Shown here: positions 13,053 to 26,156 of the stretch, one piece after another
Numbering within the stretch: position 1 is the stretch's first letter
Layout of the letters: each line of letters begins with the position of its first letter
Virus record (IMG/VR): IMGVR_UViG_3300043409_000596
Span: 1 to 26,156 of that record
Strand: one strand, 5' to 3'
Source of the DNA: a virus
DNA: 26,156 nucleotides
Notes under the pieces: generated by a model
The model's input: only the letters and a program-made list of their open reading frames with translations
Told to the model about the DNA's origin: nothing
Database searches by the model: none
Made by a program: the position numbers and the translations under genes

Positions 13053-14765
13053 ATGGCCACGTTTAACACGGCGTTCGGTTCGCTGCCCGGATACAAGGAA
13101 ATGATGGGCACGACCAACAGCACCGCTGGCGGCGAAGAAAAGACGCCCACGGTGTATGGGGGTCAAACGCAGACCCAACGCAAGACCGAGCAGCCCGCAC
13201 AGACCTTTGCCCAGATGCAAACGCAGGGTCGGGCACGTCCTGCGGCTCCTGCTAGCCCTACAGCGACCGCCTTTGGACAGTACGGCGGAAGTCAGCAGGG
13301 ACAGCAGTTGCGAAGCCAGTTGCAGCAGCGGTTGACCGAGTTTGGGCAGGCTCCGTCGCGGTATGATACGGAGTCGTTCAAGCAAATCCGTGGCGCACAA
13401 GCGGCGAACCTCCAGTCGGAATACTCCGCGCAGCAGAAGGCGTTGAACGAAGACCTTGCCCGCCGTGGATTGTCCGCGTCGAGCATTGGCGGTGGGCGGA
13501 TGGGTGACTTGGCAGGGCAACAGGCTCGTGCCTTGTCGTCGCTGGACGCCCAGTTGTTGCAGCAGGCGGCAGACACGCAGGCACAAGACCGTGCCCAGTA
13601 CATGCAGTCAGGGCAGGGCTTGGCCGAACTGGCGGGGTCACAAGACCTTCAGCAGTTTGAGGCCAACCGTGTGGCACAGGCCGCGACGTTTGAGAACCAG
13701 TTGCGGTCGGCACAGTTTGGCCAGCAGCAGTACGAACAGGCGGGACAAGAAGCCTTCCAAGGCGCACAGTCTGAAGAAGCCGCCTCGCAAGCCGCTCGCC
13801 AGTTTGACTTGGCTGCGCTTGGACAGACGGGCGGATTGTCACTGGACTTGCAGCGGTTGCTCGGGTCGCAGGAAGTGGAACGGGCTGGTCTGACAGGGCA
13901 GCTTGGGACGCAGCAGACGTTGGCCGGACAGCAGCAGGCAGAACAGACGCGCCAGTTTAACATTCAGCAGGCGTTGCAGCAGCAGCTTGGCATTGGCCAG
14001 TTGGGTGTCAGTCAGGGCGAATTGGCGGTTCGCCAGCAACAGGCAAACGAAGAGGCGCGGCAGTTTGGCCTTTCACTGAATGAGCAGCAGTCGGCTCGCC
14101 TCCAGCAGTATGGTATCTCTGTGCAGGAGCTTGGGCTTGAAACGCAGCGGGTGCAGAACCAAGCCTCACAGTTTGGTCAGCAGTTGTCCTCGCAAAACGC
14201 GCAGAACACCGCACAGAACAATCTGGAGCAGGCGCGGATCAACGAGGCCATTGCCGCTCGCGGGACGGGCGTGTCGGAGTCGGCGTTGGAGCGGCAAGCG
14301 CGTCAGTCGTTGCAGACACAGCAGACATCAGAGCAAGCTAGACAGTTCAACCTTGAGCAGTCATTGCGTAACGCCATCGCGCAGACGGAAGCCACAGGGT
14401 ATGCCTATCAGCCGCTAACAACCGGAACATCGGTTGGCGCTCTTGGTGGGATGACCGGAACCTTGGCGCGGACGGCACTGGAAGGACAGCAGTCACAGGC
14501 GAACCTAGACCTTATGCTTCGTCGCCAGCTTGGGTTGACTGAGTTGTCCGGGAGAGTCTACGATCCTAGTGGCACAAGCATGGGGTCGGTGGAAACGGTC
14601 GGCTCTCGGTCGGCGACGGCGCAGGACCAGTTGGCGAAAAACCAACTCTTTATCCAGTTGGCGCAGGCGCTTGGTGCTCTCTCTCCGACGCAGATTCAGA
14701 ACATTGTCAAGACTGGCACCACAAATACTGGTGGCGCTGACGGCGACCCCAACACCGCAATTTAG
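13053..14765 (+). CDS. Gln-rich internal virion protein candidate
   Basis: The product has 570 residues, starts 2 nt after the previous stop, and is dominated by Gln, Ala, Ser, Leu and Gly. A short motif, (A/T)RQF(N/D/G)(L/I), recurs near residues 249, 300, 336 and 431, with looser copies such as QASQFGQQL in between, so much of the protein is a long, imperfectly periodic helix. There is no enzyme motif, signal peptide or clear membrane span. Such Gln-rich helical proteins are common next to ejection-protein genes in environmental podophages, where they may form part of the internal core or a periplasmic tube. That role is an inference. Confidence 0.55.
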   Translation: MATFNTAFGSLPGYKEMMGTTNSTAGGEEKTPTVYGGQTQTQRKTEQPAQTFAQMQTQGRARPAAPASPTATAFGQYGGSQQGQQLRSQLQQRLTEFGQAPSRYDTESFKQIRGAQAANLQSEYSAQQKALNEDLARRGLSASSIGGGRMGDLAGQQARALSSLDAQLLQQAADTQAQDRAQYMQSGQGLAELAGSQDLQQFEANRVAQAATFENQLRSAQFGQQQYEQAGQEAFQGAQSEEAASQAARQFDLAALGQTGGLSLDLQRLLGSQEVERAGLTGQLGTQQTLAGQQQAEQTRQFNIQQALQQQLGIGQLGVSQGELAVRQQQANEEARQFGLSLNEQQSARLQQYGISVQELGLETQRVQNQASQFGQQLSSQNAQNTAQNNLEQARINEAIAARGTGVSESALERQARQSLQTQQTSEQARQFNLEQSLRNAIAQTEATGYAYQPLTTGTSVGALGGMTGTLARTALEGQQSQANLDLMLRRQLGLTELSGRVYDPSGTSMGSVETVGSRSATAQDQLAKNQLFIQLAQALGALSPTQIQNIVKTGTTNTGGADGDPNTAI

Positions 14766-14787
14766 CCCATAGCTCGGAGACATTTAT

Positions 14788-15756
14788 ATGGCACGACGAG
14801 GATTTGGCGGCACCGCGCTCAGAGCAGCACTGGGCGCGGTCACAGGCGTCGCAGAAGGGATGCAACAGCGTGAGGTGGTCGCGGAACAGCGCCGCAAGGA
14901 CGCAGAAGAGGCAATGTTCCGGCGCATTACTGCTGGGATACTGCCGGTCGAAGATGTGCTTCCGCAAGAACAGGGGAAGATCGGACCACTGGCGGCATCG
15001 CCAGCGGCTATGCCCTCGGCACCAACACCTCCCGCAACGTTTGGGCAAATGATGGCCCAGCGGACACAAGCGCCAGTTGGAGGCTCGGGACCAATGGCCC
15101 CCGCTGCCTTTGGCGCTTCTGCGGCAGCCCCTCCGCGGACCGTATCAAACGTCCAGCGCGTGATGGATGAGTTCAGCTCGCGCGCCCCGAAGACCTTCCG
15201 TGAAGGCACTCAGCGGTATGCGTTGCCTCGGACGGACGAGGAGCGGACGATGCTGAGCATTGCGCTGCAACAGGCGGCGGGGCAGGATACGACGGCGGGG
15301 AACGAAGCGGCGATTGAGAAGCAGGCGCAGGCGTTTGCGTCACTGGTCGGCGGAGACATGAACAAGGCGCGGTTGCTGGCGCGGGGGATTCCGCCCGGGA
15401 TGCTTGGCGTGGAGACGTCGAGTCCGCTGGAGAGGCGTGTGTCTGAGGCGAACATCCGGCAGAGTGATGCGGCGGCAGCAGCTTCACGCGCTGCGGGTGA
15501 CGCCGCAAGGGACACTAAGTCCGGGAAGATGACGGAAAGGGACATCAACGAGCAGATTGCGCGATACATGCAGCAGGATGTTATTCTCAAAGATGACTCA
15601 GGGCAGGAGACGCGACGCCAAAAGACGGAGCAGGAAATTCGGACGTTTGCGGCAACACTCCGCGCTATTGTGAATACCCCAACAGAATTTCCGAGCTTTG
15701 AGAATTGGAGTCGCAGCGGGATGAACCCGTTTCCGAACACCGCGCCGAAGAAGTAA
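14788..15756 (+). CDS. Internal virion protein candidate, 322 aa
   Basis: The ATG at 14788 has a CGGAGA ribosome site upstream. The N-terminus (RGFGGTALRAALGAVTGVAE) is a Gly/Ala-rich amphipathic segment followed by a charged helix (MQQREVVAEQRRKDAEEAMF). The centre is Pro/Ala-rich and the rest is helical with many Gln, Glu and Arg. The end is a Gly/Asn/Pro-rich tail with three Lys. No family or active site was recognised. Composition and position between the Gln-rich protein and the giant protein suggest a third member of the ejection set. Confidence 0.5.
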   Translation: MARRGFGGTALRAALGAVTGVAEGMQQREVVAEQRRKDAEEAMFRRITAGILPVEDVLPQEQGKIGPLAASPAAMPSAPTPPATFGQMMAQRTQAPVGGSGPMAPAAFGASAAAPPRTVSNVQRVMDEFSSRAPKTFREGTQRYALPRTDEERTMLSIALQQAAGQDTTAGNEAAIEKQAQAFASLVGGDMNKARLLARGIPPGMLGVETSSPLERRVSEANIRQSDAAAAASRAAGDAARDTKSGKMTERDINEQIARYMQQDVILKDDSGQETRRQKTEQEIRTFAATLRAIVNTPTEFPSFENWSRSGMNPFPNTAPKK

Positions 15757-15776
15757 ATCCTTACCGGACATAGCCT

Positions 15777-18700
15777 ATGCCTGATCCGATCAAGTCTCGC
15801 GCAGAGTACGAACGCCAAAAGTCGCTGTATGGCGAGTATATGCGCCAGAAGGAGGACTTCTACAAAAAGGCGTATGGCGCAGCAGAGCCACCGACCCCGA
15901 TCCCCGCTCCTACTGCTGACCGGCCCGGGCTAGTCAGCCGCTTCTTGAATCGGGCGGCGGTCAGCGGGATGCGGTTGGGGGCAGACGTTGGCGAGATGCT
16001 GGCAGGTATCCCGTCTCCCGGAGCGCGTCCAGCCGCGGACCTCCCGAAGGCCAGAGCGCAGGGCGTCGCCGGAGCCAGATCGTTACGGGAATCGGCGGCA
16101 ACACTGGAAGCAAAGGTGCCAGAGGCGCAGGGCCTTCTGGAGTATGCTGCGTCTGGGGCTGGGTATATGGCCCCAGACGTTGTGGCCACCATGCTTGGCA
16201 CTGAAGCGTTGTCTGGTATGTCAAAGGGACTCCGCGCTGAGTCTCTGCTGGGGCGTTTCCTAACCCCAGACAAAGCCGCTGGGGTGATCCGCCGGAATAT
16301 CCCGGGCGCGATTGCTGCTGCCCCGCTTGTTACGATCCCGGGCGCGCTCTCCGAAGAAAGCAGGCGGTCTGCGACGGGTACGCTTGGCGAGATGCTGACG
16401 GGCAAGCGCCCGAGCGCCCCAGTCCGTGTCGCTGGCGACATTGCCCTCGACGTGCTGGGCGGTGCGGTGGCAGAGAAGCTGCTCATCAATCCCGTGGCGA
16501 AGATGTTTGGCAAGCGGGCGGCTGCTACCGCCGCCGATGTTCCCGTCACAGGCCCTGTCACTACTCCGCCGCGAACAGAACCGCTCCGGCTTGGCGCGGG
16601 GTCCTATGCCATGCCTGCGTCAACCGACGACTTTGCCTTTCGGCAGGCGCGGATCGACGAGGTGATGCGGCGGGCGCAAGAGGATGTGGCAAAGGCGCAA
16701 GAGCTAGGGGGAGGACGGACGCCCACTACTGTGCCCGTGTTGTCCCAAGAGGATATCGCAGACCGTCTAGCGGCCCTTGCGGCGCAGGCCGGAGGCAAAG
16801 AGGGGAGCGGCCTCGTTGTGCCAGAGGTGTTCAGCCCCCGTGGGACACGACGGCAGAATATCCTGCGTGGCCAAGCAGAGCAGAGCGCCCGGCAAATACA
16901 GTCCGACCTTGACAACCGTCGCGCTATGGCGACGCCAGACATGGGAGCCACGCGCCAGTTGGAAGCGGCAGCGGAGGCAGGGAGTCAACAGCGGGGAGCA
17001 CAGCCGAAACCCCTCATCGAGACGTTCACGGGCCGTGGTCGCCGTGGCTCGACGAGTGCGGCGGTGCTTTCCCCAGTCGGCGGGGCGGGCCTTGGCGCGA
17101 CGGGGGGCCTTGCAACGGCCCAGTCGGACGACGACATGACGCCGCTGCAGCGGGCGCTCGCCTTTGGTTCCGTTGGCGCTGGGCTAGCCTCTGGAAAGGC
17201 CGCGACGGCGCTTCGAGCGTTGGGCCGCGAAGCGGGAGGCGAGGTAGGCGAGGTGGGCGAACGTGTTCTCGGTCGCCGTTCTTCTGGATCGGCCATCCCG
17301 CAAGAGACGCGGGCGGTCGGACGGTTTGGCTTTGTCAAACCCCCAGAGACGTATGTGCTCGACGAAGCGTTTGAGCGGGAGCACATGACAAACGTCTTTA
17401 CCGCAACCGAACCGACACTGTCTCGGATTGGCGCACAGTCGCAAGAAGCGGTTGATGGCGCAGGCTTGTTTGGTGGTGATGTCTCCCCGAACAGCATCAT
17501 GCGGTTTGCCGATGAGGCCACCGACGACGACATTCGTATCGCTGCGGCAATGCGGGGACTAGCGTTTGGCCAAGACCAGCAGTTAATCTACCGGAGGGCG
17601 CGTCCCACCGACAAGGAAAGCACGGCGGCGGTGGTCATTACCGGGCCGGATTTCGCCCAGTTGCCCAATGACGTGATCGACGCCGTGGTCACTCGACTGA
17701 GAGCCGATGACGCGCTTGGCCCGTATGGTGGGGCAACGCGGGAGGGGGGCCACTTGCTGGCGCTCAACCTGAAGCGGTATACCGGAATGGACGATGATGT
17801 TTTCCGGCAGGCTGTCACAAAAGCTCTAGACGATGTTGCACAGACACAGAACATAGCCGTTCACCCTTCCTCGTATTACTCGGAGCATTTAGATGGCACT
17901 GCAGATTATGCCAGAACTCTCGGACGACGCCCCGACGCCCTTCGCGCTGCGCGGGACGCGATTGTTGTCGCACAGCCCGAGTACATCCGGTATGCCACAG
18001 CCGTTGGCGCCGATGTCAACGCGGCAGAGCGAGAGATTGCCGCTCGCATCGAATCCCTCGACCGACTCCTCAATCAGGTAGAGAACCCGCCACAGCTTGG
18101 CCGGACCAAGGGTGGCGTCCCTCTCGTCGAGGCCGCAAAGCAGGTCTACTCCCAGTTCCCCCGTCTCGGGAGAGAGGACCTTGGGGCCGTCGTCCCTGAG
18201 ATGGTCTCGCGGCTGGGCACCATGGTTGACGACCTCGTTGACACTGGCGTCATGAACCGAGAGATGGCGCAAGACTTCTACCGTGGGGCAACCCTTGACC
18301 AGCGGCAGATTGCGCGGTTGGCGTTGCCAGAACTGCGGGAAGACCCGAAGTACGCCTTGTACACGGTTGTTAACAGCATCCTGTCGTCAGGCCAACAGGT
18401 CGCCGCCGAGAGCAGGCAGGGGCTGAACGTCTTTGAGCAGTACCTCAAGACTGGGCGCTTCTCCATCCTTAATCCAGAGAACGCTCAGTACAAGCAGTCG
18501 CTGACTGGCGGGAAGAAGGCGTTCACGGGGGATAGAGGGACGGGTCTGCTCGGAGAGCAAATGGCCGCTTCGCCCCGTACCCTGAATCACGAACAAGCCC
18601 TGAATCGGCTGGACGCGCTCGTGCAGTCGCTTGGCGAAGATGGCGCTGCAGCCGCGTTGGCGGAGACTGTGCCCATCATGCGGGGCAAGACCGTCATCGA

Positions 18701-21700
18701 AGAACGGCCCGCGCTTGTCTTCCTCTTTGGCCCCAAGATCGGCCAGTATGCGATGGACAAGCTGGGCATTATCGGAGGCGACAAATCCACGATCGATCTG
18801 TGGATGGCGCGGCTGAACCATATGCTGCTCGGAGTTGGGGACGATGTCCCGCTCAAGGGCAAAGCGTTGAACGACGACGTTGACCCTGCGATGCGGAACC
18901 GCATGCAGGCGGTGATTGCCCGGTACGCCAAAGAAAAGGGCATCCCAGAGTCCTCCGCGCAAGCGGTGGCGTGGTACGCGATCAAGAACGCCTTCCGTGG
19001 GGCCGGGTCACAAGAGAAAAAGATGGCCTATGCCACGCTCGGGAGTGCAACAACCGACGCCATGGCAACCCCGCTGACCAAAGAGTTTACGGGAGAGCCG
19101 CTCACGCAGGGGATGGTCAAGCAATCGACCGCGTATGATCGGGCGGCAGAGGGATGGGACGACCCCACCCTGCGGGATTTTGCCAAGAAGACCGGACGAC
19201 AGGGAACGATTGCGCCGACCGCCGGGGCCTTTGCCGGCAAGGTCTTTGACGTGGGCGGCGCGTTTGGCGCTGCCGTGGGGACACAGTTTGGACGTGAGGC
19301 GCTGCCAAAAGTCGCCGTTGGCGTGGGCGGGTACGAGCTTGAGCAGATGTCCGACGACCCGCGCCTCAAGGCGACCGGACAGGGCATGCAGCTCCTCGGG
19401 GCACTCTCGCTGGGCTATCAGCCGAGCAAGGTCTTGGTCCGTTCTGGGGCGGTAAACCTTAAGGACGCGCTGGCCCAGTCGCCGAAGGGGCGCATGGCCC
19501 TCAACCTCATCAGCCGTGACATCCTGATCGACCCGAAGATCAAGTCGCTCGTCGAGCTGGCCGAGCGGGAGATGTCGAAGTACCGTGCAATCGGCATTGA
19601 CCTTGCACGGAGGGCACGAGCCTTGGGGCCGGAAGGCGATCGCCTTGTCTCGGACATCGTAGAGGGGGAGAAGCTACAGTCCCGTGCCGGGATGGACGAC
19701 GAGACGGTCAGGGCGGCGATGGCGGTGGCGGAGAAGGTCGCACAGGAAGTGGTCGGCCTTGGAGAACAGAAGGTGGCCACCGGAACCATTTCGCAGGCCA
19801 CGTTCTTGCGGCGCAAGGCGTCCTACCTCAAGCGGATTTATGCGGCGTTCAAGGGTGGCGAGGCGATGAACGCCGTCACGATCCGAAAGGGCAACAAGAC
19901 GTTCCGCATTGAGCCGGAGCGGGTGCGGAATGAGAACCTGACGGTCGATGAGCGGAACGCACTGGGTGAAATCCGCGAGGCGTCGGTACGGCTTGGCGAG
20001 ACCTTTACTCGTGGTGGGAAGAACATTGCCACGTCACGGCTCTTCAATGCGCTGGCAGACATCGACGGCGTGATTGCGCCTGCCTACAAACAGGCGATGG
20101 ATCAGGCCGAGAACGCCCGTCTCCTCTCTGATGCGGCCTATGCGAGTGGCGACACAGAGATGGGGAAGGCGGCTCGCGGTGCCGAGATGGAGGCCAAGCG
20201 CACGATGAAGGGGCTAGCACAGGAGATCGTGGCCTCCGACGACCAGTACATCGTGCTGCCGGACACGCCGAAGCTGAGCTTTCTTCGAGGCGCAGTGGTA
20301 CGGAAGGACGCCGCAGAGTACCTGATGACCATGCCGGACTTTGGCATTGATCGGGTCGGAGTGAGGGGCATCTACGACAACGTGATGCGCTTTTGGAAGC
20401 GGGTACACACCGTCTACAACCCGGGCACACACGTTGGCAACTTCGTGTCCAACGCCTCGAAGGTGCATATGGGCGGACTCTCCCTCATGGAGCAGCCTGT
20501 CTATCTCACAGAGGCGTGGAAGGACCTTCGGAACTACGGGCCAGCCACGAAAGCCTTGGCGGAAGCCGGAGTGCTGGAGCGGGGTATCCCGACATACGGC
20601 GACATTGCCGTGGAAGGAATCGCCTCGCAGAAGCAGACCCTCCAGCAGTTGGCCAAGACCACCCGCCCAGAAACGCGACAGGCGTTGAAGGCGCGTGGCG
20701 TCGAACCGCGTGGGAAGGCCCGGGAGTTTGCTGGGTGGGCCTCACAAAAGGCGCAGACGGCCTATGCGTTGGAGGATGGCGTCTACCGGGTGGCGCTGTA
20801 CAAGAAGCTGCGTGACAATGGGATGGGCGGGGACGAGGCGCTGAAGGAAGTCGAGCGAGTGCTTCCCGGCTACGATACGCGGTCGCCCCTGTTGACCGGG
20901 ATTAAGAACTCGGTGTCCCCGTTCATCATGTATCCCGTCAAGTATATCCCCAGCTTGATGGAAGACATCATGGACCACCCGGAGCGGTGGGTGGTGCTGG
21001 CCGCGCTGTGGGGTGGGATGGACCAGTTGAGCCGGAGCCAGTACACGCCCGTCGATGATCGGGACCTGCGCCCCGAGCAGCGGATGAACAAGCGGCTGGG
21101 CTATCTAATGCCCGGGACGATACAGGTGGATGCGTTTATGCGCCCGCTGGCCAAGGCGTTCGGTGCCGAGCCAAAGCGCGGCGAGAGCTACACCTTCGAC
21201 GTTTCCCGCTTTACGCCGCTGTCCCTCTTCTCCGGCAGTCCTGCGCCGGGGTCTGTCGTGGGGAAGATTCTTCCGGGTGTCCCGGGGGCCTCGATCCTCC
21301 AACCGTCAGGCCCTATTCCGGAACTCTTCTCTCGCGCTAAAAACATTGACCCGTTTACGGGACGGGAGTGGATGACTGGGGGAGAGTCTGGCTTACAGAA
21401 GGCGCGGATGATCGCAGAAGATGCGGTCCTCCCGTTTATCACGCCCACCGCCGTGTCGTTCTACGGGAAGAAGCTGCTCAAGGAGACGATCCCCTCTAAG
21501 AATCGTTCGGAAATGCTCTCCGATGTCATGGGGATGCTTGGGACAAAGGCACAGCTTGTCCGCCCGGGGATGCAGTCGCGGTACGAGCGCCAAGACTTTA
21601 TGAACCAGATACGGGCCGTCAAATCCAAGCGTGACAACCTTCTCCGCAAGACGGAATCCCCTGAGCGGAGACAGGAACTCTTGGACGCCTCCGCAAAAGA

Positions 21701-21767
21701 CCTTCAGCGAATCCGCGCAAAATACTCTGCCAGTCGGCAGGCCCTAACCGATGAGACCAAGCGATGA
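15777..21767 (+). CDS. Giant (1,996 aa) internal virion / polyvalent-type protein
   Basis: This is the largest gene in the window, from ATG 15777 to a TGA that overlaps the next ATG (ATGA). The N-terminus is a charged helix (residues 10-35). Gly/Ala-rich hydrophobic patches lie near 120-150, 430-485 and 1148-1225. A compact-looking domain covers about 520-1080 and includes GPKIGQYAMDKLGIIGG, STIDLWMARLNHMLLG (to about 1020) and GIPESSAQAVAWYAIKNAF (about 1053-1072), segments like those in large polyvalent phage proteins. The C-terminal third has VYNPGTHVGNFVSNASKVHM (about 1546) and a hydrophobic stretch near 1718-1750, then a basic helical tail. The likely role is delivery with the DNA, like T7 gp16 or P22 gp16. 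No N-terminal lytic transglycosylase motif of the T7 gp16 type was seen. Any enzymatic domain is unproven. Confidence 0.6.
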   Translation: MPDPIKSRAEYERQKSLYGEYMRQKEDFYKKAYGAAEPPTPIPAPTADRPGLVSRFLNRAAVSGMRLGADVGEMLAGIPSPGARPAADLPKARAQGVAGARSLRESAATLEAKVPEAQGLLEYAASGAGYMAPDVVATMLGTEALSGMSKGLRAESLLGRFLTPDKAAGVIRRNIPGAIAAAPLVTIPGALSEESRRSATGTLGEMLTGKRPSAPVRVAGDIALDVLGGAVAEKLLINPVAKMFGKRAAATAADVPVTGPVTTPPRTEPLRLGAGSYAMPASTDDFAFRQARIDEVMRRAQEDVAKAQELGGGRTPTTVPVLSQEDIADRLAALAAQAGGKEGSGLVVPEVFSPRGTRRQNILRGQAEQSARQIQSDLDNRRAMATPDMGATRQLEAAAEAGSQQRGAQPKPLIETFTGRGRRGSTSAAVLSPVGGAGLGATGGLATAQSDDDMTPLQRALAFGSVGAGLASGKAATALRALGREAGGEVGEVGERVLGRRSSGSAIPQETRAVGRFGFVKPPETYVLDEAFEREHMTNVFTATEPTLSRIGAQSQEAVDGAGLFGGDVSPNSIMRFADEATDDDIRIAAAMRGLAFGQDQQLIYRRARPTDKESTAAVVITGPDFAQLPNDVIDAVVTRLRADDALGPYGGATREGGHLLALNLKRYTGMDDDVFRQAVTKALDDVAQTQNIAVHPSSYYSEHLDGTADYARTLGRRPDALRAARDAIVVAQPEYIRYATAVGADVNAAEREIAARIESLDRLLNQVENPPQLGRTKGGVPLVEAAKQVYSQFPRLGREDLGAVVPEMVSRLGTMVDDLVDTGVMNREMAQDFYRGATLDQRQIARLALPELREDPKYALYTVVNSILSSGQQVAAESRQGLNVFEQYLKTGRFSILNPENAQYKQSLTGGKKAFTGDRGTGLLGEQMAASPRTLNHEQALNRLDALVQSLGEDGAAAALAETVPIMRGKTVIEERPALVFLFGPKIGQYAMDKLGIIGGDKSTIDLWMARLNHMLLGVGDDVPLKGKALNDDVDPAMRNRMQAVIARYAKEKGIPESSAQAVAWYAIKNAFRGAGSQEKKMAYATLGSATTDAMATPLTKEFTGEPLTQGMVKQSTAYDRAAEGWDDPTLRDFAKKTGRQGTIAPTAGAFAGKVFDVGGAFGAAVGTQFGREALPKVAVGVGGYELEQMSDDPRLKATGQGMQLLGALSLGYQPSKVLVRSGAVNLKDALAQSPKGRMALNLISRDILIDPKIKSLVELAEREMSKYRAIGIDLARRARALGPEGDRLVSDIVEGEKLQSRAGMDDETVRAAMAVAEKVAQEVVGLGEQKVATGTISQATFLRRKASYLKRIYAAFKGGEAMNAVTIRKGNKTFRIEPERVRNENLTVDERNALGEIREASVRLGETFTRGGKNIATSRLFNALADIDGVIAPAYKQAMDQAENARLLSDAAYASGDTEMGKAARGAEMEAKRTMKGLAQEIVASDDQYIVLPDTPKLSFLRGAVVRKDAAEYLMTMPDFGIDRVGVRGIYDNVMRFWKRVHTVYNPGTHVGNFVSNASKVHMGGLSLMEQPVYLTEAWKDLRNYGPATKALAEAGVLERGIPTYGDIAVEGIASQKQTLQQLAKTTRPETRQALKARGVEPRGKAREFAGWASQKAQTAYALEDGVYRVALYKKLRDNGMGGDEALKEVERVLPGYDTRSPLLTGIKNSVSPFIMYPVKYIPSLMEDIMDHPERWVVLAALWGGMDQLSRSQYTPVDDRDLRPEQRMNKRLGYLMPGTIQVDAFMRPLAKAFGAEPKRGESYTFDVSRFTPLSLFSGSPAPGSVVGKILPGVPGASILQPSGPIPELFSRAKNIDPFTGREWMTGGESGLQKARMIAEDAVLPFITPTAVSFYGKKLLKETIPSKNRSEMLSDVMGMLGTKAQLVRPGMQSRYERQDFMNQIRAVKSKRDNLLRKTESPERRQELLDASAKDLQRIRAKYSASRQALTDETKR

Positions 21768-22033
21768 CCGCTGAAACCAGTACGGCCCTCATGATCGGTG
21801 CCGCCTCTGCCGCTGGAACGGCCTTTGCCCAGACCAATCCCGCATGGAGCATGGCGGTGCCGCTGGTGTCGGGGTTTATCGGCATTGCTGTGTCGTGGGG
21901 CATGATGCGGGTGACGGTCAAGGTGGTCGAACGTGACGTAAAGGGAATGAGGGACGACATCCGCGACATCTACAACTTGACCCGTGACATCAGTGATCGG
22001 GTCAGTCGCATGGAAGGGAGGATTGAGAAGTGA
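21764..22033 (+). CDS. Small membrane protein, holin candidate
   Basis: The product has 89 residues. Its ATG overlaps the previous stop (ATGA), and its TGA overlaps the GTG start of the endolysin gene (GTGA). Two hydrophobic segments (about residues 7-22 and 29-50) are followed by a charged helix rich in Arg and Asp (RDVKGMRDDIRDIYNLTRDI) that looks like a coiled coil in the cytoplasm. Two spans, small size and direct translational coupling to an endolysin fit a holin, which opens the inner membrane at lysis. A membrane-anchored regulator of lysis is an alternative. Confidence 0.65.
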   Translation: MTAETSTALMIGAASAAGTAFAQTNPAWSMAVPLVSGFIGIAVSWGMMRVTVKVVERDVKGMRDDIRDIYNLTRDISDRVSRMEGRIEK

Positions 22034-22545
22034 GTAAACTCCCTGCTGCCCCTGCTGAAGTGCCGGTGCAGTCTGACATCACCCTCTTGGCCCCGTTCTT
22101 TCGAGAAGCGGTGGAGAGAGTGGTTGCCGACATGAAGGCGTGGGGCTACACCCCGCAAGTCTTTGAGACGATGCGGACAGAAGAGCGGCAAGCGTTCCTG
22201 TACGGCTTTGGCCGCACCTACGACGATGGCCGTGGAGTGGTCACCCACTCGCAGAGCGCCGATGATACATGGCACGGCTATGGGCTGGCCGTAGACATCA
22301 TCTGCGCGAGGAGGAAGTGGAACGCTGGGCCGCACTTCTGGAACGTGCTAGGCACTTCGGCCCGTCGGCATGGGCTGGTGTGGGGCGGCGACTGGAATAG
22401 CAACTGGTCGATCAACGACGAGAGCTTCGCAGACCGTCCACACATTCAGTGGGGCGCAACACGACGAAGCCCGTCGGCGAAGGCCGTGGAGTTGCGAACG
22501 AAGGGTGGACTGATCGCCGTGTGGAGTGCCGTCGCGGCGATGTAG
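22030..22545 (+). CDS. Endolysin, M15-family zinc peptidase
   Basis: The product has 171 residues, starts at GTG 22030 within a GTGA overlap, and is the last gene of the rightward block. The centre carries the M15 (VanY/T5 endolysin-type) signature WHGYGLAVDI, giving zinc ligands His82 and Asp89, and the C-terminal part has DRPHIQW, giving the third ligand His138 with the presumed catalytic Asp135 three residues before it, the spacing seen in T5 endolysin. Enzymes of this type cut peptide cross-bridges in peptidoglycan (L-Ala-D-Glu or D-Ala-D-Ala type bonds). There is no signal peptide, so release depends on the holin. No separate cell-wall-binding domain is present, as usual for phages of Gram-negative hosts. 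Confidence 0.87.
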   Translation: MSKLPAAPAEVPVQSDITLLAPFFREAVERVVADMKAWGYTPQVFETMRTEERQAFLYGFGRTYDDGRGVVTHSQSADDTWHGYGLAVDIICARRKWNAGPHFWNVLGTSARRHGLVWGGDWNSNWSINDESFADRPHIQWGATRRSPSAKAVELRTKGGLIAVWSAVAAM

Positions 22546-22557
22546 AGACAACACAGC

Positions 22558-22602
22558 AACACGAAGCCCCCGTCGCTAGGAAAGCTACGGGGGCTTTGTG
22601 TT
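22558..22602. terminator. Convergent hairpin terminator
   Basis: Arms AACACGAAGCCCCCGT (22558-22573) and ACGGGGGCTTTGTGTT (22587-22602) pair over 16 positions with a single G-U wobble and a 13-nt loop. The + strand side ends in a T-rich CTTTGTGTT, the best terminating side. In the other direction the exit is TCGTGTTGCTGTGTTG, weaker but usable. It lies 13 nt after the endolysin stop and its right arm contains the stop codon of the leftward 104-aa gene, so it separates the two convergent operons. Confidence 0.85.
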
Positions 22603-22915
22603 ACCGCTTATACGGATGCTCCCACGGCGGGGGCGAGGCAGAGCCACTGTCCCAGCGTTCTTTCCGGTCCTTTGGCGACTTTCCCTTGTGCATGTCGCGG
22701 AAGCAGTGGCCAAGGGAAGTCCATTCAATTGTCTTCCCGCTCGGCGTCATCGGCGAGACATCGCGGACAGAGTCGGTGACAATGATCCGATTCCCCCGCA
22801 GCCCCTTGACGACAAACCGCAGGGTGCTGTCATCCCAGCGGCACGACACGGTGGATTTGTCAGAGAGACGGACACGGTAGCGGTCGTTGTGGGTCAGGTA
22901 CAGTCTTGCGGTCAT
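22601..22915 (-). CDS. Unknown 104-aa protein, last gene of leftward operon
   Basis: The start codon at 22915 overlaps the stop of the upstream gene (ATGA), and the TAA stop lies inside the terminator stem. The N-terminal 55 residues have alternating strands (ARLYLTHNDRYRVRLSDKST, FVVKGLRGNRIIVTD), the C-terminal half is basic and rich in Ser, Trp and Pro (SPKDRKERWDSGSASPPPWE). A small beta-barrel nucleic-acid-binding fold is imaginable, but no family was recognised. Confidence 0.6.
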   Translation of the reverse strand: MTARLYLTHNDRYRVRLSDKSTVSCRWDDSTLRFVVKGLRGNRIIVTDSVRDVSPMTPSGKTIEWTSLGHCFRDMHKGKSPKDRKERWDSGSASPPPWEHPYKR

Positions 22916-23178
22916 GGCGTTCCCTTTGCTGCTGTCTTACGGACAGCGGCGTTAAAGTGTTTGATGATCGTCCGCTCTAGCTCCTCGCAATACTCCGCAA
23001 TGGCTTTCACATCGTCAACGTGTGCCAGCTTGGCCTCGCGGCTCACGCGGCCTTGTTGCCGCAGCTTGCCCAGTGCCTCCGCATGGTGGCGCAAGGCACG
23101 GGCAGCACTGGCAACGTCTTGTCGGATCGTGTTGATGGTACGAGGGGACTTGTGCAGTCCGTTAAACGCTCTGTCCAC
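22912..23178 (-). CDS. Unknown 88-aa helical protein
   Basis: The start is GTG at 23178, with a strong AAGGAG ribosome site just upstream on the - strand. It overlaps the end of the 52-aa membrane-protein gene by 17 nt and ends in an ATGA overlap with the next gene. The product is mostly helical with many charged residues (TIRQDVASAARALRHHAEAL, AIAEYCEELERTIIKHFNAA) and no membrane span. No family was recognised. Confidence 0.62.
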   Translation of the reverse strand: MDRAFNGLHKSPRTINTIRQDVASAARALRHHAEALGKLRQQGRVSREAKLAHVDDVKAIAEYCEELERTIIKHFNAAVRKTAAKGTP

Positions 23179-23320
23179 GCCTCTCCTTCCACCGCTCTGC
23201 TGCGTCGATGGGCTTCTTCATGATCTTGTGTACCACTTCTTCGACGGCAAACAGGGTATGAACGAACCCAATAAGGGTAAGACAGCCCAGCGGCCACAAA
23301 TACATAACGGGGATCGTCAT
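23162..23320 (-). CDS. Small single-span membrane protein, 52 aa
   Basis: Found by reading the - strand: ATG at 23320, stop TAA at 23164-23162. The start overlaps the upstream stop (ATGA) and is preceded by a very strong CAGGAGGGGGC ribosome site. The N-terminal half is a hydrophobic span (PVMYLWPLGCLTLIGFVHTL, about residues 4-26) and the rest is charged (KKPIDAAERWKERRGQ), so one membrane pass with a cytoplasmic basic tail is likely. No family was recognised. A host-membrane modifier, an anti-defence protein or a lysis accessory are all open. Confidence 0.7.
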   Translation of the reverse strand: MTIPVMYLWPLGCLTLIGFVHTLFAVEEVVHKIMKKPIDAAERWKERRGQSV

Positions 23321-23529
23321 GCCCCCTCCTGCGGGTGCAGGATTTTGCCGATGGCATCAACGAGCCGTTCGACGCCCTTTGACCGCTCGTACCCATTGAG
23401 AAACTTGATTACCCACTGCTTGTGCAGGGTGTCAATCGCGGCGAGTTGTTCGCGCAGCCGTATCACTTCGTCGGCCATGCCCTCGCTTCCGAACTCGCGT
23501 AGCACATCAACCACATCCTCTCTGGTCAT
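23317..23529 (-). CDS. Unknown 70-aa helical protein
   Basis: The ATG at 23529 was chosen over an upstream start that would add 26 Gly/Arg-rich residues, because it overlaps the previous stop (ATGA) and has an AGGAGGAAGAGGC ribosome site. The product (MTREDVVDVLREFGSEGMAD...) is helical and charged, with a likely coiled-coil segment (EVIRLREQLAAIDTLHKQWV). No family was recognised. Confidence 0.66.
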   Translation of the reverse strand: MTREDVVDVLREFGSEGMADEVIRLREQLAAIDTLHKQWVIKFLNGYERSKGVERLVDAIGKILHPQEGA

Positions 23530-23702
23530 GCCTCTTCCTCCTCTGCCTCTGCCCCAAACTCGGGCATCGGGTCCAACTGCTCCCCCGTGTCGCGGTCTTC
23601 TTGCCACTGTGCCTTGGCGTGACGGAGAACGGCGGCATCATACGCTCGCTCGTAGTCTAGCCCGTCGTCTTCGCTCTGAATGTCCCAGTCATCGAATGTC
23701 AT
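23526..23702 (-). CDS. Small acidic protein, 58 aa
   Basis: Found by reading the - strand: ATG at 23702, TGA at 23528-23526. The start overlaps the stop of the upstream 39-aa gene (ATGA) with a GGAGG ribosome site 7 nt ahead, and the stop overlaps the next start. The product begins MTFDDWDIQSEDDGLDYERA and ends in a run of Glu (GAEAEEEEA), with few basic residues. Such strongly acidic small proteins can mimic DNA and block DNA-binding host proteins. That is a possibility suggested by charge only. Confidence 0.65.
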   Translation of the reverse strand: MTFDDWDIQSEDDGLDYERAYDAAVLRHAKAQWQEDRDTGEQLDPMPEFGAEAEEEEA

Positions 23703-23818
23703 CGCCCTGCCTCCTTGTCTTGGGTGTCTTGTGTCTTACGTTTTCTTGCGTCGTGCAACGCGCCGTGTGCGAGTAGGACTAGCAACACCAGCACCATCCC
23801 CCAAAACGTCCACGGCAT
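23699..23818 (-). CDS. Small single-span membrane protein, 39 aa, overlapping the resolvase gene
   Basis: Found by reading the - strand: ATG at 23818, TGA at 23701-23699 overlapping the next ATG. A CTGGAGG ribosome site lies just upstream. The product MPWTFWGMVLVLLVLLAHGA has one hydrophobic span (about residues 5-19) and a basic, hydrophilic tail (ALHDARKRKTQDTQDKEAGR). Its first 83 nt lie in another frame within the 3' end of the RusA-like gene. The strong ribosome site and the stop/start coupling with the next gene are the main support. No family was recognised. Confidence 0.6.
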   Translation of the reverse strand: MPWTFWGMVLVLLVLLAHGALHDARKRKTQDTQDKEAGR

Positions 23819-24179
23819 CTAACCTCCAGATAGTGATGACGGCCCCTGCCTCCTTCCCCTTCTCGGCAGGCTCAAACTTCCATCGCTCGTCTCGGACTTG
23901 TCGATCATCGACCCAGACCCCGCCGACATCCGTGATCCCGTCCTTCAGGTTCTTCGAGAAGTTGAGATCACGGCGGCGACGGTCAGGCTCTCGAACCAGA
24001 ACGTACAACCCCAAGTCAACGTCAACAAGAGGCCAGCCAAAGATTTTTGCAGATTTCTTGGCAAGGGTGCCGATCACCAGCTTGGCCTCACGGTACTGGT
24101 CGGACAGGATGTAGCGGTACTTGAACTTGCGGTTGTCAGAGCAGAGGGCGGTCCACGGGACGGCAAATGTGAGGATCAA
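23736..24179 (-). CDS. RusA-like Holliday junction resolvase
   Basis: The start is taken as TTG at 24179 because it overlaps the primase-helicase stop by 4 nt (TTGA) behind an AAGGAG site, matching the other junctions of this operon; a start at 24278 would overlap that gene by about 100 nt. The product has 147 residues. The opening MILTFAVPWTAL, the centre RRRRDLNFSKNLKDGI (67-82) and VWVDDRQVRDERW (88-100), and the final strand GAVITIWRL follow the RusA layout. RusA cuts four-way DNA junctions as a dimer, useful for clearing branched replicated DNA before packaging. Asp71, Lys76 and Asp91/92 are present, but the usual D-x-D-N pair reads D-L-N-F. The C-terminal 25 residues are basic and Arg-rich. 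Confidence 0.62.
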   Translation of the reverse strand: MILTFAVPWTALCSDNRKFKYRYILSDQYREAKLVIGTLAKKSAKIFGWPLVDVDLGLYVLVREPDRRRRDLNFSKNLKDGITDVGGVWVDDRQVRDERWKFEPAEKGKEAGAVITIWRLDAVDVLGDGAGVASPTRTRRVARRKKT

Positions 24180-25927
24180 TTCCGCTCCTTCCACTTGGGG
24201 ATCATCGGGCCATGCTTTTCTTCCTGCTCCTTGATACTCGGCGTCCGCTGCGTCAACCGTAGGGTACGGAAGTCCCACTGGACTGGGATGTCACACGACC
24301 CACCCACGCGGTTCTTGTCTACGATCAACCATGTGTCGGCCAAGTTGCCAGAGCGGGTGAAGCGGGAGTGATCGAACAGCAGCACTTGGTGGCTGTCATT
24401 CTCAATGGCGGACCCACCCATCAAGCCCTGACTAATGGGCCGCTCGGCACGGTTGGCACTGGTCTGTCGGTTGAACTGAGACAGCGTGACCATGCGGACG
24501 TTCAACGTCTGTGCGAGTTCGCGGAGTTCATGCGAGACAGCTTCAATGCGGTCGTGGATGTTGTTCATGTTCGACACGCTGGCGAGTTGGATGTAGTCCA
24601 TGATGAAGTACTTGGACCCACTGACCTCGGCGTGATGCTTAATGCAGGCTGACACATCAGACATCTTGGACAGTGGACGGCGGTTGACGAGCACATGACC
24701 GCCCGTCCTTTCTCGGGTCTCGTTGAGCATCCGTGCCGCCCGTCCGTACGCCGCTTGATCGAACATCGGCCCTTGCTCTAGCAGCACCACACTTTCGTTG
24801 CTGACGACCGACAGCAGGCGTGTAGCGAGTTCGCTCCGCCCCATCTCCAAGCTGACAAACGTCACCGTCTCGCCATGTTCGATGGCACGGGCGGCGAGGT
24901 TAATGCCGATCAACGACTTGCCCGTGCCCGTGTTGGCCCCAACCGTAATCAGCCAACTCTTTGCCAAGCCCACGCCACCACCGCTTGATCCGCACACACG
25001 GTTCCACGCTTCGAGCGGCGTTGGCACCGCATCGACGGGAAGGAGTTTCTCGGTCAACATCTGATCCAACGTGTCGCCCGTGATGCTGTCAAACGCCACG
25101 GCTGGCGGCTCTGCGCCGATGGGCGTGGTGGTGCCGAGGATGCCCTGCCACACCGTTGCCCAGTCATCGCCATGCGCCTGCACCGACTGATGCAAATCGC
25201 ACAGGTCTTTCATGGGCTGACCGTGGTGCTTCACATCCCGCAGGATACGAGCCTTGGGCAGCGACGGAGAGATCGCCGCCACCATGGTTGCGCCCCCTTC
25301 GTCAGGCTCTTGCCACACGATCACCTCACGGCCCGACAAGAGGCTGGCATACTCCCCCTTCCACTGCGAAGCCCCCGGCAAGCCCACCACCGTCACCCCC
25401 CGCTGCCACCCTGCATGGCAGTCACTCTCACCCTCCACGACCAGCACAGGGCCAGCAGGGGCAGCGGCCAGTACGTCCTGCCCGTACAACGGCGTCCCTT
25501 CCCCGTCCCGATCCCAGAACGTCCCTTTTCTGGTACGGCACTTGGTACGGATGGTGCTGCCATCAGCACGACGGTACGGCATGGCGACAATCGCATCACC
25601 AAACTTCCCCACCCGTTCGACGACACCAGCCTTGGCCAGCCCTGCCAGCGACAACCCCTTCCGCTCGGCGTACTCCTGCAACGTTAGCCCACTGGCTGAT
25701 TTGGCGTCGTCAGGCAGGGTGACGCCCAGCACATCAGCCAGTGTCGCCAGCGGTTCGGTGAAGCCACAGGCCGAACATCCCCACGCATGATCGCCCAGCC
25801 ACGCACTACTGGTGCTGTCGTTGTGCCGTACACAGCGGAAGGCAATCGCCTTGCCCGTTTTTTTTGCATGATGCCCTCCCCGTAGCAGGGCAGACTTCAA
25901 CAGGCCGTGCGCGTCGAGGGTGTTCAC
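24176..25927 (-). CDS. Primase-helicase fusion (T7 gp4-like architecture)
   Basis: The GTG start at 25927 overlaps the upstream stop (GTGA). The product has 583 residues. A zinc-binding segment (Cys32, His35, Cys51, Cys54) is followed by a Toprim primase domain with VLVVEGESD (161-169) and EPDEGG (207-212). The C-terminal half is a DnaB/gp4-type hexameric helicase: Walker A GANTGTGKS (330-338), SLEM with catalytic Glu361, Walker B FIMDYIQL (441-448), SQFNR (483-487), GGSAIENDSHQVLLF (504-518) and DKNR (537-540), where an arginine finger is expected. It would unwind the replication fork and lay down RNA primers. The Toprim acidic pair reads E-P-D where D-x-D is usual. Confidence 0.9.
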   Translation of the reverse strand: MNTLDAHGLLKSALLRGGHHAKKTGKAIAFRCVRHNDSTSSAWLGDHAWGCSACGFTEPLATLADVLGVTLPDDAKSASGLTLQEYAERKGLSLAGLAKAGVVERVGKFGDAIVAMPYRRADGSTIRTKCRTRKGTFWDRDGEGTPLYGQDVLAAAPAGPVLVVEGESDCHAGWQRGVTVVGLPGASQWKGEYASLLSGREVIVWQEPDEGGATMVAAISPSLPKARILRDVKHHGQPMKDLCDLHQSVQAHGDDWATVWQGILGTTTPIGAEPPAVAFDSITGDTLDQMLTEKLLPVDAVPTPLEAWNRVCGSSGGGVGLAKSWLITVGANTGTGKSLIGINLAARAIEHGETVTFVSLEMGRSELATRLLSVVSNESVVLLEQGPMFDQAAYGRAARMLNETRERTGGHVLVNRRPLSKMSDVSACIKHHAEVSGSKYFIMDYIQLASVSNMNNIHDRIEAVSHELRELAQTLNVRMVTLSQFNRQTSANRAERPISQGLMGGSAIENDSHQVLLFDHSRFTRSGNLADTWLIVDKNRVGGSCDIPVQWDFRTLRLTQRTPSIKEQEEKHGPMIPKWKERN

Positions 25928-26142
25928 CCCTCCTCTTGCATCAGCAGTTCAGGCTTGCGGTAAGCGTAACGCTGCATGAGTTCGGCGTAGGTGGCTGCAC
26001 AAAAGTTGAAATGCCAACCCCCAATGGGGTCCCCAACCTCTACCACGGCAGCCCACCCATGCCCGTGCATGTACGACACATGAAGCAGGGTGTTGGTATC
26101 GAAGAACCAGAAGAGCTGTTCGGTGAAGTAGCGATCTTTCAT
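25924..26142 (-). CDS. Unknown 72-aa protein
   Basis: The ATG at 26142 overlaps the stop of an upstream gene (ATGA), and the TGA overlaps the primase-helicase GTG start. The product is rich in aromatic residues and His (QLFWFFDTNTLLHVSYMHGH, GGWHFNFCAATYAEL) without a clear membrane span. No family was recognised. Coupling to the primase-helicase suggests a replication-associated or regulatory role, without direct evidence. Confidence 0.62.
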   Translation of the reverse strand: MKDRYFTEQLFWFFDTNTLLHVSYMHGHGWAAVVEVGDPIGGWHFNFCAATYAELMQRYAYRKPELLMQEEG

Positions 26143-26156
26143 TCGGCGTACCAGAT
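26139..26156 (-). CDS. C-terminal codons of an upstream leftward gene (partial)
   Basis: On the - strand the last 18 bases read IWYAE followed by TGA at 26141-26139, and that TGA overlaps the ATG of the 72-aa gene by 3 nt, the same ATGA junction used through the operon. So a further leftward gene most likely runs in from beyond the window. Five codons allow no product call. Confidence 0.45.
   Translation of the reverse strand: MWYAE

What the first reader, a model, noticed from the sequence alone, without database searches (positions are those of the whole stretch)
22601..26156. Leftward operon of stacked overlapping genes with three start codons and several unlisted tiny genes
Seven of the nine junctions seen are 4-nt stop/start overlaps using ATGA, GTGA and TTGA; the other two overlap by 17 and 83 nt. 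Most starts have a strong ribosome site inside the previous gene. This pattern predicts near-obligate translational coupling. It reveals three proteins of 39, 52 and 58 residues that a length cut-off would miss, and it corrects the starts of the resolvase (TTG) and the 70-aa protein. The uncharacterised small genes downstream of the replication genes are the best place in the window for an undescribed host-takeover or anti-defence function.
Basis: partly seen in the sequence, partly recalled or inferred. Interest (0 to 1): 0.72.

Follow-up and report, generated by a model that had tools for sequence, protein, structure and literature searches.

The report
Swappable small-gene tail of phage operon
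At the end of the replication operon of an undescribed bacterial virus sits a run of genuinely conserved, previously unnamed tiny genes joined end to end by 4-base stop/start overlaps; related viruses swap these genes one at a time while usually keeping the same joint. The overlaps themselves are ordinary, and what the tiny proteins do is still unknown.

Summary
Related contigs show that the small genes are real. Frames are intact in every relative found, and dN/dS is about 0.1-0.35 for the 58-, 52-, 88- and 104-aa genes. The 39-aa gene is a membrane segment overprinted on the 3' end of rusA, conserved with its ribosome site in seven contigs; its dN/dS is uninformative. The 70-aa gene has only one relative. 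The RusA TTG start is conserved. Overlaps of 4 nt are the commonest spacing in prokaryotes, so the architecture is ordinary; 'near-obligate' coupling is not shown, and two starts look open enough for independent initiation. New here: the region is a mosaic of single-gene cassettes. Genes with different upstream neighbours nearly always keep the 4-nt joint (47/77 junctions versus 7/85 in structural genes). In relatives the same stretch holds C5 DNA methyltransferases (five contigs) and a Mom DNA-modification gene (one), which gives location support, and only that, for a counter-defence role. Side finding: the whole replication module is inverted between close relatives.

The parts
25924..26142 (-). 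g1, 72 aa, ATG start overlapping the previous stop by 4 nt
   Evidence: homologues in about 10 other loci (29-100% identity), dN/dS 0.2-0.4
24176..25927 (-). g2, 583 aa primase-helicase, GTG start at a GTGA joint
   Evidence: PF03796 1e-31, phrog_239 1e-41
23736..24179 (-). g3, 147 aa RusA-like Holliday junction resolvase, TTG start at a TTGA joint; the last ~26 residues are a tail present in close relatives where g4 overlaps
   Evidence: phrog_34 9e-11; matches PDB 1q8r 2e-6; TTG start conserved; tail
23699..23818 (-). g4, 39 aa single-span membrane protein overprinted (+1 frame) on the rusA 3' end by 83 nt
   Evidence: same frame, SD and start in seven other contigs, plus one without overlap; hydrophobicity
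23526..23702 (-). g5, 58 aa acidic protein (net charge -16), conserved motif DDWDI...YERA.D.A...HAK.Q..EDRDTG..LDP
   Evidence: ten relatives 60-89% identical, dN/dS 0.10-0.24
23317..23529 (-). g6, 70 aa, ATG at an ATGA joint, strongest SD of the set
   Evidence: one relative only, residues 10-70 at 87%; dN/dS uninformative
23162..23320 (-). g7, 52 aa single-span membrane protein, conserved IPxxxLWPLGCL
   Evidence: found in eleven contigs, including integrase-bearing phages; dN/dS 0.17-0.30
22912..23178 (-). g8, 88 aa basic helical protein, GTG start, 17-nt overlap with g7
   Evidence: four relatives 49-68%; dN/dS 0.26-0.34
22601..22915 (-). g9, 104 aa basic protein, predicted small all-beta N-terminal domain (residues 1-76)
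   Evidence: relatives at 67-91% plus one at ~30%; dN/dS 0.11-0.24; AlphaFold pLDDT ~80 over residues 11-70
22564..22596 (.). candidate two-way terminator hairpin between the operon and the convergent lysin gene
   Evidence: inverted repeat AAGCCCCCGT...ACGGGGGCTT read; not flagged by the scan, whose loop limit is 8

Best explanation
This is the accessory tail of the leftward replication operon of a tailed phage from a lineage without cultured relatives. After primase-helicase and RusA come six small co-directed genes (39, 58, 70, 52, 88 and 104 aa) of a kind that relatives gain, lose and swap as single-gene cassettes. Each gene usually ends with a ribosome-binding sequence in its last codons followed by ATGA, GTGA or TTGA, so whichever gene comes next is translated by reinitiation at the joint, by fresh initiation at the embedded SD, or both. 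The joint works as a generic connector: a cassette can be exchanged without losing expression of the next gene. Likely roles (inferred): conditionally useful early functions such as modification or protection of DNA and modulation of the host; g4 and g7 act in the membrane. Shown: gene reality, exchange, joint conservation, the company of DNA-modification genes. Inferred: coupling in vivo, connector role, function.
For: Intact frames and low dN/dS for g5, g7, g8, g9. Alignment ends between the window and relatives lie a median 9.5 nt from gene boundaries (random 39; 60% within 12 nt against 20%). Families with several different upstream neighbours keep the 4-nt overlap: F9 in six of seven neighbour types, g5 in all five types (with one 11-nt exception within one type), g7 behind five different genes. 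With a gene caller that gives no bonus to 4-nt overlaps, 47/77 accessory junctions against 7/85 structural ones are 4 nt. Same stretch in relatives: C5 methyltransferase in L028, L032, L039, L042, L050 and Mom in L026 (PF25680 6e-38). Coupling by short overlaps: PMC10666635, PMC6728339.
Against: Loci share ancestry, so junction counts are not independent. In-house gene caller, not a standard one. Open start regions at g5 and g6 argue against strict dependence. No promoter found, so co-transcription is assumed. No functional homologue for any small protein.
Confidence: 0.7

Rival explanations
1. Plain genome compaction: 4-nt overlaps are simply the default spacing of prokaryotic co-directed genes, and conserved joints after gene exchange only reflect that any successful insertion in a gene-dense operon must have a start near the previous stop.
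For: Overlaps of 4 nt are by far the commonest spacing in 1,695 species of 49 phyla (PMC10666635). 36% of spurious ORFs already carry a start overlapping the stop by 4 nt.
Against: The structural genes of the same genomes mostly have short gaps, 7 of 85 joints at 4 nt against 47 of 77 here, so spacing is not uniform within the genome.
Confidence: 0.4
2. The small genes are a dedicated counter-defence island: g5 is an acidic DNA mimic or decoy, g4 and g7 are membrane-acting proteins such as exclusion or signalling blockers, and g8 and g9 bind nucleic acid.
For: Methyltransferase and Mom genes occupy the same stretch in relatives, and a sulfur-transfer (PAPS-reductase/SspD-like) gene lies just before primase in L032. 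g5 net charge -16 of 58 residues. High turnover of genes.
Against: No hit to PADLOC, Pfam, PHROGs or NCBIfam families. g5 structure unresolved (pLDDT 62, one helix). The C-terminal Glu run of g5 coincides with the SD of the next gene and may be partly dictated by it (sequence). A methyltransferase may serve gene regulation or simple self-protection.
Confidence: 0.3
3. The smallest frames are translation devices rather than functional proteins: short coupled ORFs that hand ribosomes on.
For: Short length; strong SDs at the joints.
Against: Protein-level selection on g5, g7, g8 and g9 and conserved residues independent of neighbours. It survives only for g6 and partly g4, where dN/dS is uninformative (0.84 on 16 differences) or confounded by the rusA overlap (0.6).
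Confidence: 0.05

Closest known systems
Overlapping gene pairs coupled by termination-reinitiation (PMC6728339; PMC10666635)
   Same: 4-nt stop/start overlaps with an SD inside the upstream gene
   Different: here the joints persist through exchange of unrelated neighbouring genes in a phage; dependence on upstream translation is untested
Early accessory regions and single-gene mosaicism of tailed phages (own knowledge)
   Same: rapid turnover of small unnamed genes beside replication genes, together with DNA-modification genes
   Different: almost no intergenic space: cassettes meet at ATGA-type joints inside one operon; unlike classical morons, no promoter or terminator of their own was seen
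Mom and C5-methyltransferase counter-restriction genes
   Same: found in this stretch of related contigs (L026; L028, L032, L039, L042, L050)
   Different: absent from the window itself, whose small proteins have no sequence relation to them
Overprinted small membrane genes such as Rz1 in Rz (own knowledge)
   Same: g4 is a small membrane-protein gene in a +1 frame over a longer gene
   Different: host gene is rusA, overlap only partial, not part of the lysis cluster; lipoprotein signal not looked for by a tool

Membership tests
Termination-reinitiation coupled gene pairs | stop and start overlap by 4 or 1 nt | tested here: met
   7 of 9 joints
Termination-reinitiation coupled gene pairs | SD motif inside the upstream gene (common, not essential) | tested here: met
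   six of nine strong, three weak to moderate
Termination-reinitiation coupled gene pairs | translation of the downstream gene depends on translation of the upstream gene | not testable with these tools
   predicted start accessibility is mixed
RusA Holliday junction resolvase (g3) | sequence similarity to RusA | tested here: met
   phrog_34 9e-11; PF05866 5e-4 but 21.1 bits, below its 22.8 cut-off; PDB 1q8r 2e-6
RusA Holliday junction resolvase (g3) | catalytic residues Asp70, Asp72, Asp91 and Lys76 of E. coli RusA (residues from own knowledge) | tested here: inconclusive
   D70, K76 and D91 equivalents present; the DLD of E. coli is DLN with one residue fewer in this clade, so D72 has no clear counterpart. 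Filed as RusA-like.
Moron genes | independent gene with its own promoter and terminator | tested here: not met
   no promoter-like site found in the region; the single terminator-like call on this strand lies across a joint and is within chance expectation; genes overlap
DNA-mimic anti-restriction proteins such as Ocr | strongly acidic small protein | tested here: met
   g5 net charge -16, pI 4.1
DNA-mimic anti-restriction proteins such as Ocr | sequence or fold match to a known mimic | tested here: inconclusive
   no family hit; model of low confidence, not searched by fold
Sm/Hfq-like beta-barrel RNA-binding proteins (g9) | Sm fold | tested here: inconclusive
   best PDB matches include Lsm/Hfq but E >= 0.07 and TM about 0.4 or less by query length; no viral match at E <= 0.001
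Mom or C5-methyltransferase counter-restriction genes | sequence match in the window's small genes | tested here: not met
   no hit in the window; present only in relatives

The most novel reading that the evidence does not exclude
The SD-plus-ATGA end of each gene is a selected, standardised connector that makes early phage genes interchangeable parts: gene exchange in this lineage occurs at these joints so that every incoming counter-defence cassette is at once translated in step with the replication genes; g5 and g7 would then be new counter-defence families.
Probability: 0.15. Interest if true: 0.65.

Novelty: new member of a known kind. Interest (0 to 1): 0.36.

Why it matters
Length cut-offs drop genes like these. 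Here comparison of relatives confirms several tiny genes in a phage lineage without a close record in the phage collection searched, and shows the stretch is a cassette site shared with DNA-modification genes, which makes it a rational place to screen for new counter-defence proteins. The retained 4-nt joint offers a testable idea of how gene-dense phage operons tolerate fast gene turnover.

Tried and rejected
Family searches of all nine proteins in Pfam, PHROGs and NCBIfam, and of the seven unnamed ones in PADLOC, gave no usable hit for g1 or g4-g9; weak hits were judged chance. tblastn of g5 and g9 against 50,697 phage records: none. The portal had no match there and the capsid only distant partial ones, so the host is unknown. 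Scan of 84,980 genomes with the primase profile gave one remote hit, no host or prophage. g8 and the F9 family, which both neighbour g7, looked like alternative versions of one gene; profile comparison gives no support (probability 1.7%). AlphaFold: g9 gives a small beta domain with no significant match; g5 is not resolved. 'Tiny frames are chance ORFs' rejected for g5, g7, g8, g9 by dN/dS and conservation. Inverted repeats as cause of the module inversion: none above chance.

Full report
OBSERVATION. An own gene caller trained on the large genes of the window returns the same chain up to the 88-aa gene; it misses the 104-aa gene, which is confirmed by comparison instead. Six of nine starts have a Shine-Dalgarno duplex of -8 kcal/mol or stronger. 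A start overlapping a stop by 4 nt is not rare in itself (36% of 201 spurious ORFs), but one followed by at least 39 codons with SD <= -5.5 is (5%), and rightward genes of the window have 2 of 17 such joints.

ARE THE SMALL GENES REAL? Scans of viral contigs with the primase gave 19 and then 69 loci, about 32 of them close (60-98% identical). tblastn finds the 58-aa protein in ten of the compared loci (60-89% identity), the 52-aa protein in seven plus four contigs of other phages, the 39-aa protein in eight, the 88-aa in three plus one, the 104-aa in several plus a remote relative at about 30%, and the 70-aa in one. No homologous stretch is broken by a stop; the two apparent stops in g7 lie beyond its natural end. 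Pairwise dN/dS: 58-aa 0.10-0.24, 52-aa 0.17-0.30, 88-aa 0.26-0.34, 104-aa 0.11-0.24, against 0.08-0.11 for primase; the 70-aa value (0.84 on 16 differences) is uninformative, and the 39-aa value (about 0.6) is confounded by the rusA overlap.

THE OVERPRINTED GENE. The 39-aa gene lies in the +1 frame of the rusA 3' end. Its SD (TGGAGG) is encoded by the Trp-Arg codons of the RusA motif IWRLD, and start, SD and hydrophobic segment are kept in L021, L022, L023, L025/L020, L027 and L032; in L026, where rusA is destroyed, the gene persists without overlap. Among the relatives without it, RusA ends about 20 residues earlier in L030, L031, L036, L045 and L049. Other, more distant relatives have unrelated tails. 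The last ~26 residues of the window's RusA are therefore most simply a passenger of the overlap (inference).

STARTS. The TTG start of rusA with SD about -8 recurs in L021, L022, L027 and L032, and L031 also has a TTG start there. The 70-aa start rests on the SD of -12 and the ATGA joint alone, since the only relative (143 aa) has a different N-terminus.

COUPLING. Overlaps of 4 nt are the commonest spacing of co-directed genes in prokaryotes and couple translation efficiently (PMC10666635), but SD dependence and strictness vary from pair to pair (PMC6728339). In the window the energy needed to open the start region is very low for the 58- and 70-aa genes (3rd and lowest percentile of random sites) and high for the 52-aa gene (88th). 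Uniformly near-obligate coupling is therefore not supported; mixed behaviour is the better prediction.

MOSAIC OF CASSETTES. Downstream of primase and RusA gene content differs in almost every contig. DNA similarity between the window and relatives stops close to gene boundaries (median 9.5 nt against 39 for random positions). Families met behind different genes keep the 4-nt joint: F9 behind seven gene types (six at 4 nt), the 58-aa gene behind five types, the 52-aa gene behind five different genes. With the caller's bonus for 4-nt overlaps removed, 47 of 77 accessory junctions and 7 of 85 structural junctions are 4 nt (Fisher P = 3e-13); the contigs are related, so the P value overstates independence.

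FUNCTION. No small protein has a usable family hit, and the two tested have no relative among 50,697 phage records. The company is informative: a C5 DNA methyltransferase sits in the same coupled stretch in five contigs and a Mom gene in another; a PAPS-reductase/SspD-like gene lies just before primase in L032. This supports, by location only, a role in DNA protection or host modulation. The 39- and 52-aa proteins are predicted single-span membrane proteins (hydrophobicity only). The 52-aa gene also occurs in other phages carrying an integrase-like gene; in one (L136) it follows a homologue of the 88-aa gene with an ATGA joint, the reverse of the window's order. The 104-aa protein is predicted as a small beta domain with only insignificant Sm/Hfq-like matches. 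The 58-aa protein is very acidic but unresolved; its Glu-rich end coincides with the SD of the next gene, so that run need not be functional in the protein.

SIDE FINDING. The module from the single-strand-binding-like gene (name uncertain) to the 104-aa gene is inverted as a block between relatives whose flanks are colinear (G001 23438-31596 against G004 14136-20510). It converges on the lysin gene in the window, L021 and L044/L045/L052, and runs with it in most others. On a primase tree the labels need at least two changes. No inverted repeats beyond chance were found at the ends, so there is no evidence of a programmed switch.

VERDICT. The work adds several new orphan families and a cassette model with a testable joint.

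Noticed in passing
window 22601-26156 and beyond; G001 (L107/L108) 23438-31596 versus G004 (L119/L120) 14136-20510: The whole replication module is inverted relative to the lysis and head genes between close relatives (97-98% identical primase in L021 and L022). At least two orientation changes on the primase tree; no inverted repeats at the ends.
   Followed up: partly
window 23736-24179 and relatives: RusA of this clade has DLN where E. coli RusA has the catalytic DLD, one residue shorter, so one active-site Asp has no clear counterpart.
   Followed up: partly
L026 9760-10425, L028 8923-9705: In L026 and L028 no intact rusA follows primase; a DUF1064/endonuclease I-like resolvase gene stands there instead (in L026 a 28-residue rusA remnant remains).
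   Followed up: partly
L042 9953-10633, L046 8734-9420, L050 10229-10921: RusA carries ~100-residue Arg/Pro/Ala-rich tails; in L042 a +1 frame ORF of about 107 residues overlaps the tail, and L046 has a shorter +1 frame ORF with a similar end: possible further overprinting.
   Followed up: no
L136 3744-4138: In an integrase-bearing phage a homologue of the 88-aa gene directly precedes the 52-aa gene with an ATGA joint, the reverse of the window's order.
   Followed up: partly
L028 10058-10198 and 12845-12982: Two diverged copies of the 52-aa membrane gene in one phage.
   Followed up: no
window 21764-22545: The holin-like 89-aa gene and the lysin gene are themselves joined by 4-nt overlaps (ATGA into the holin-like gene, GTGA into the lysin), the only two among the rightward genes.
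   Followed up: no
window 15777-21767: A 1996-aa protein precedes the holin-like gene; relatives are 24-40% identical or undetected, while most head genes are far better conserved.
   Followed up: no
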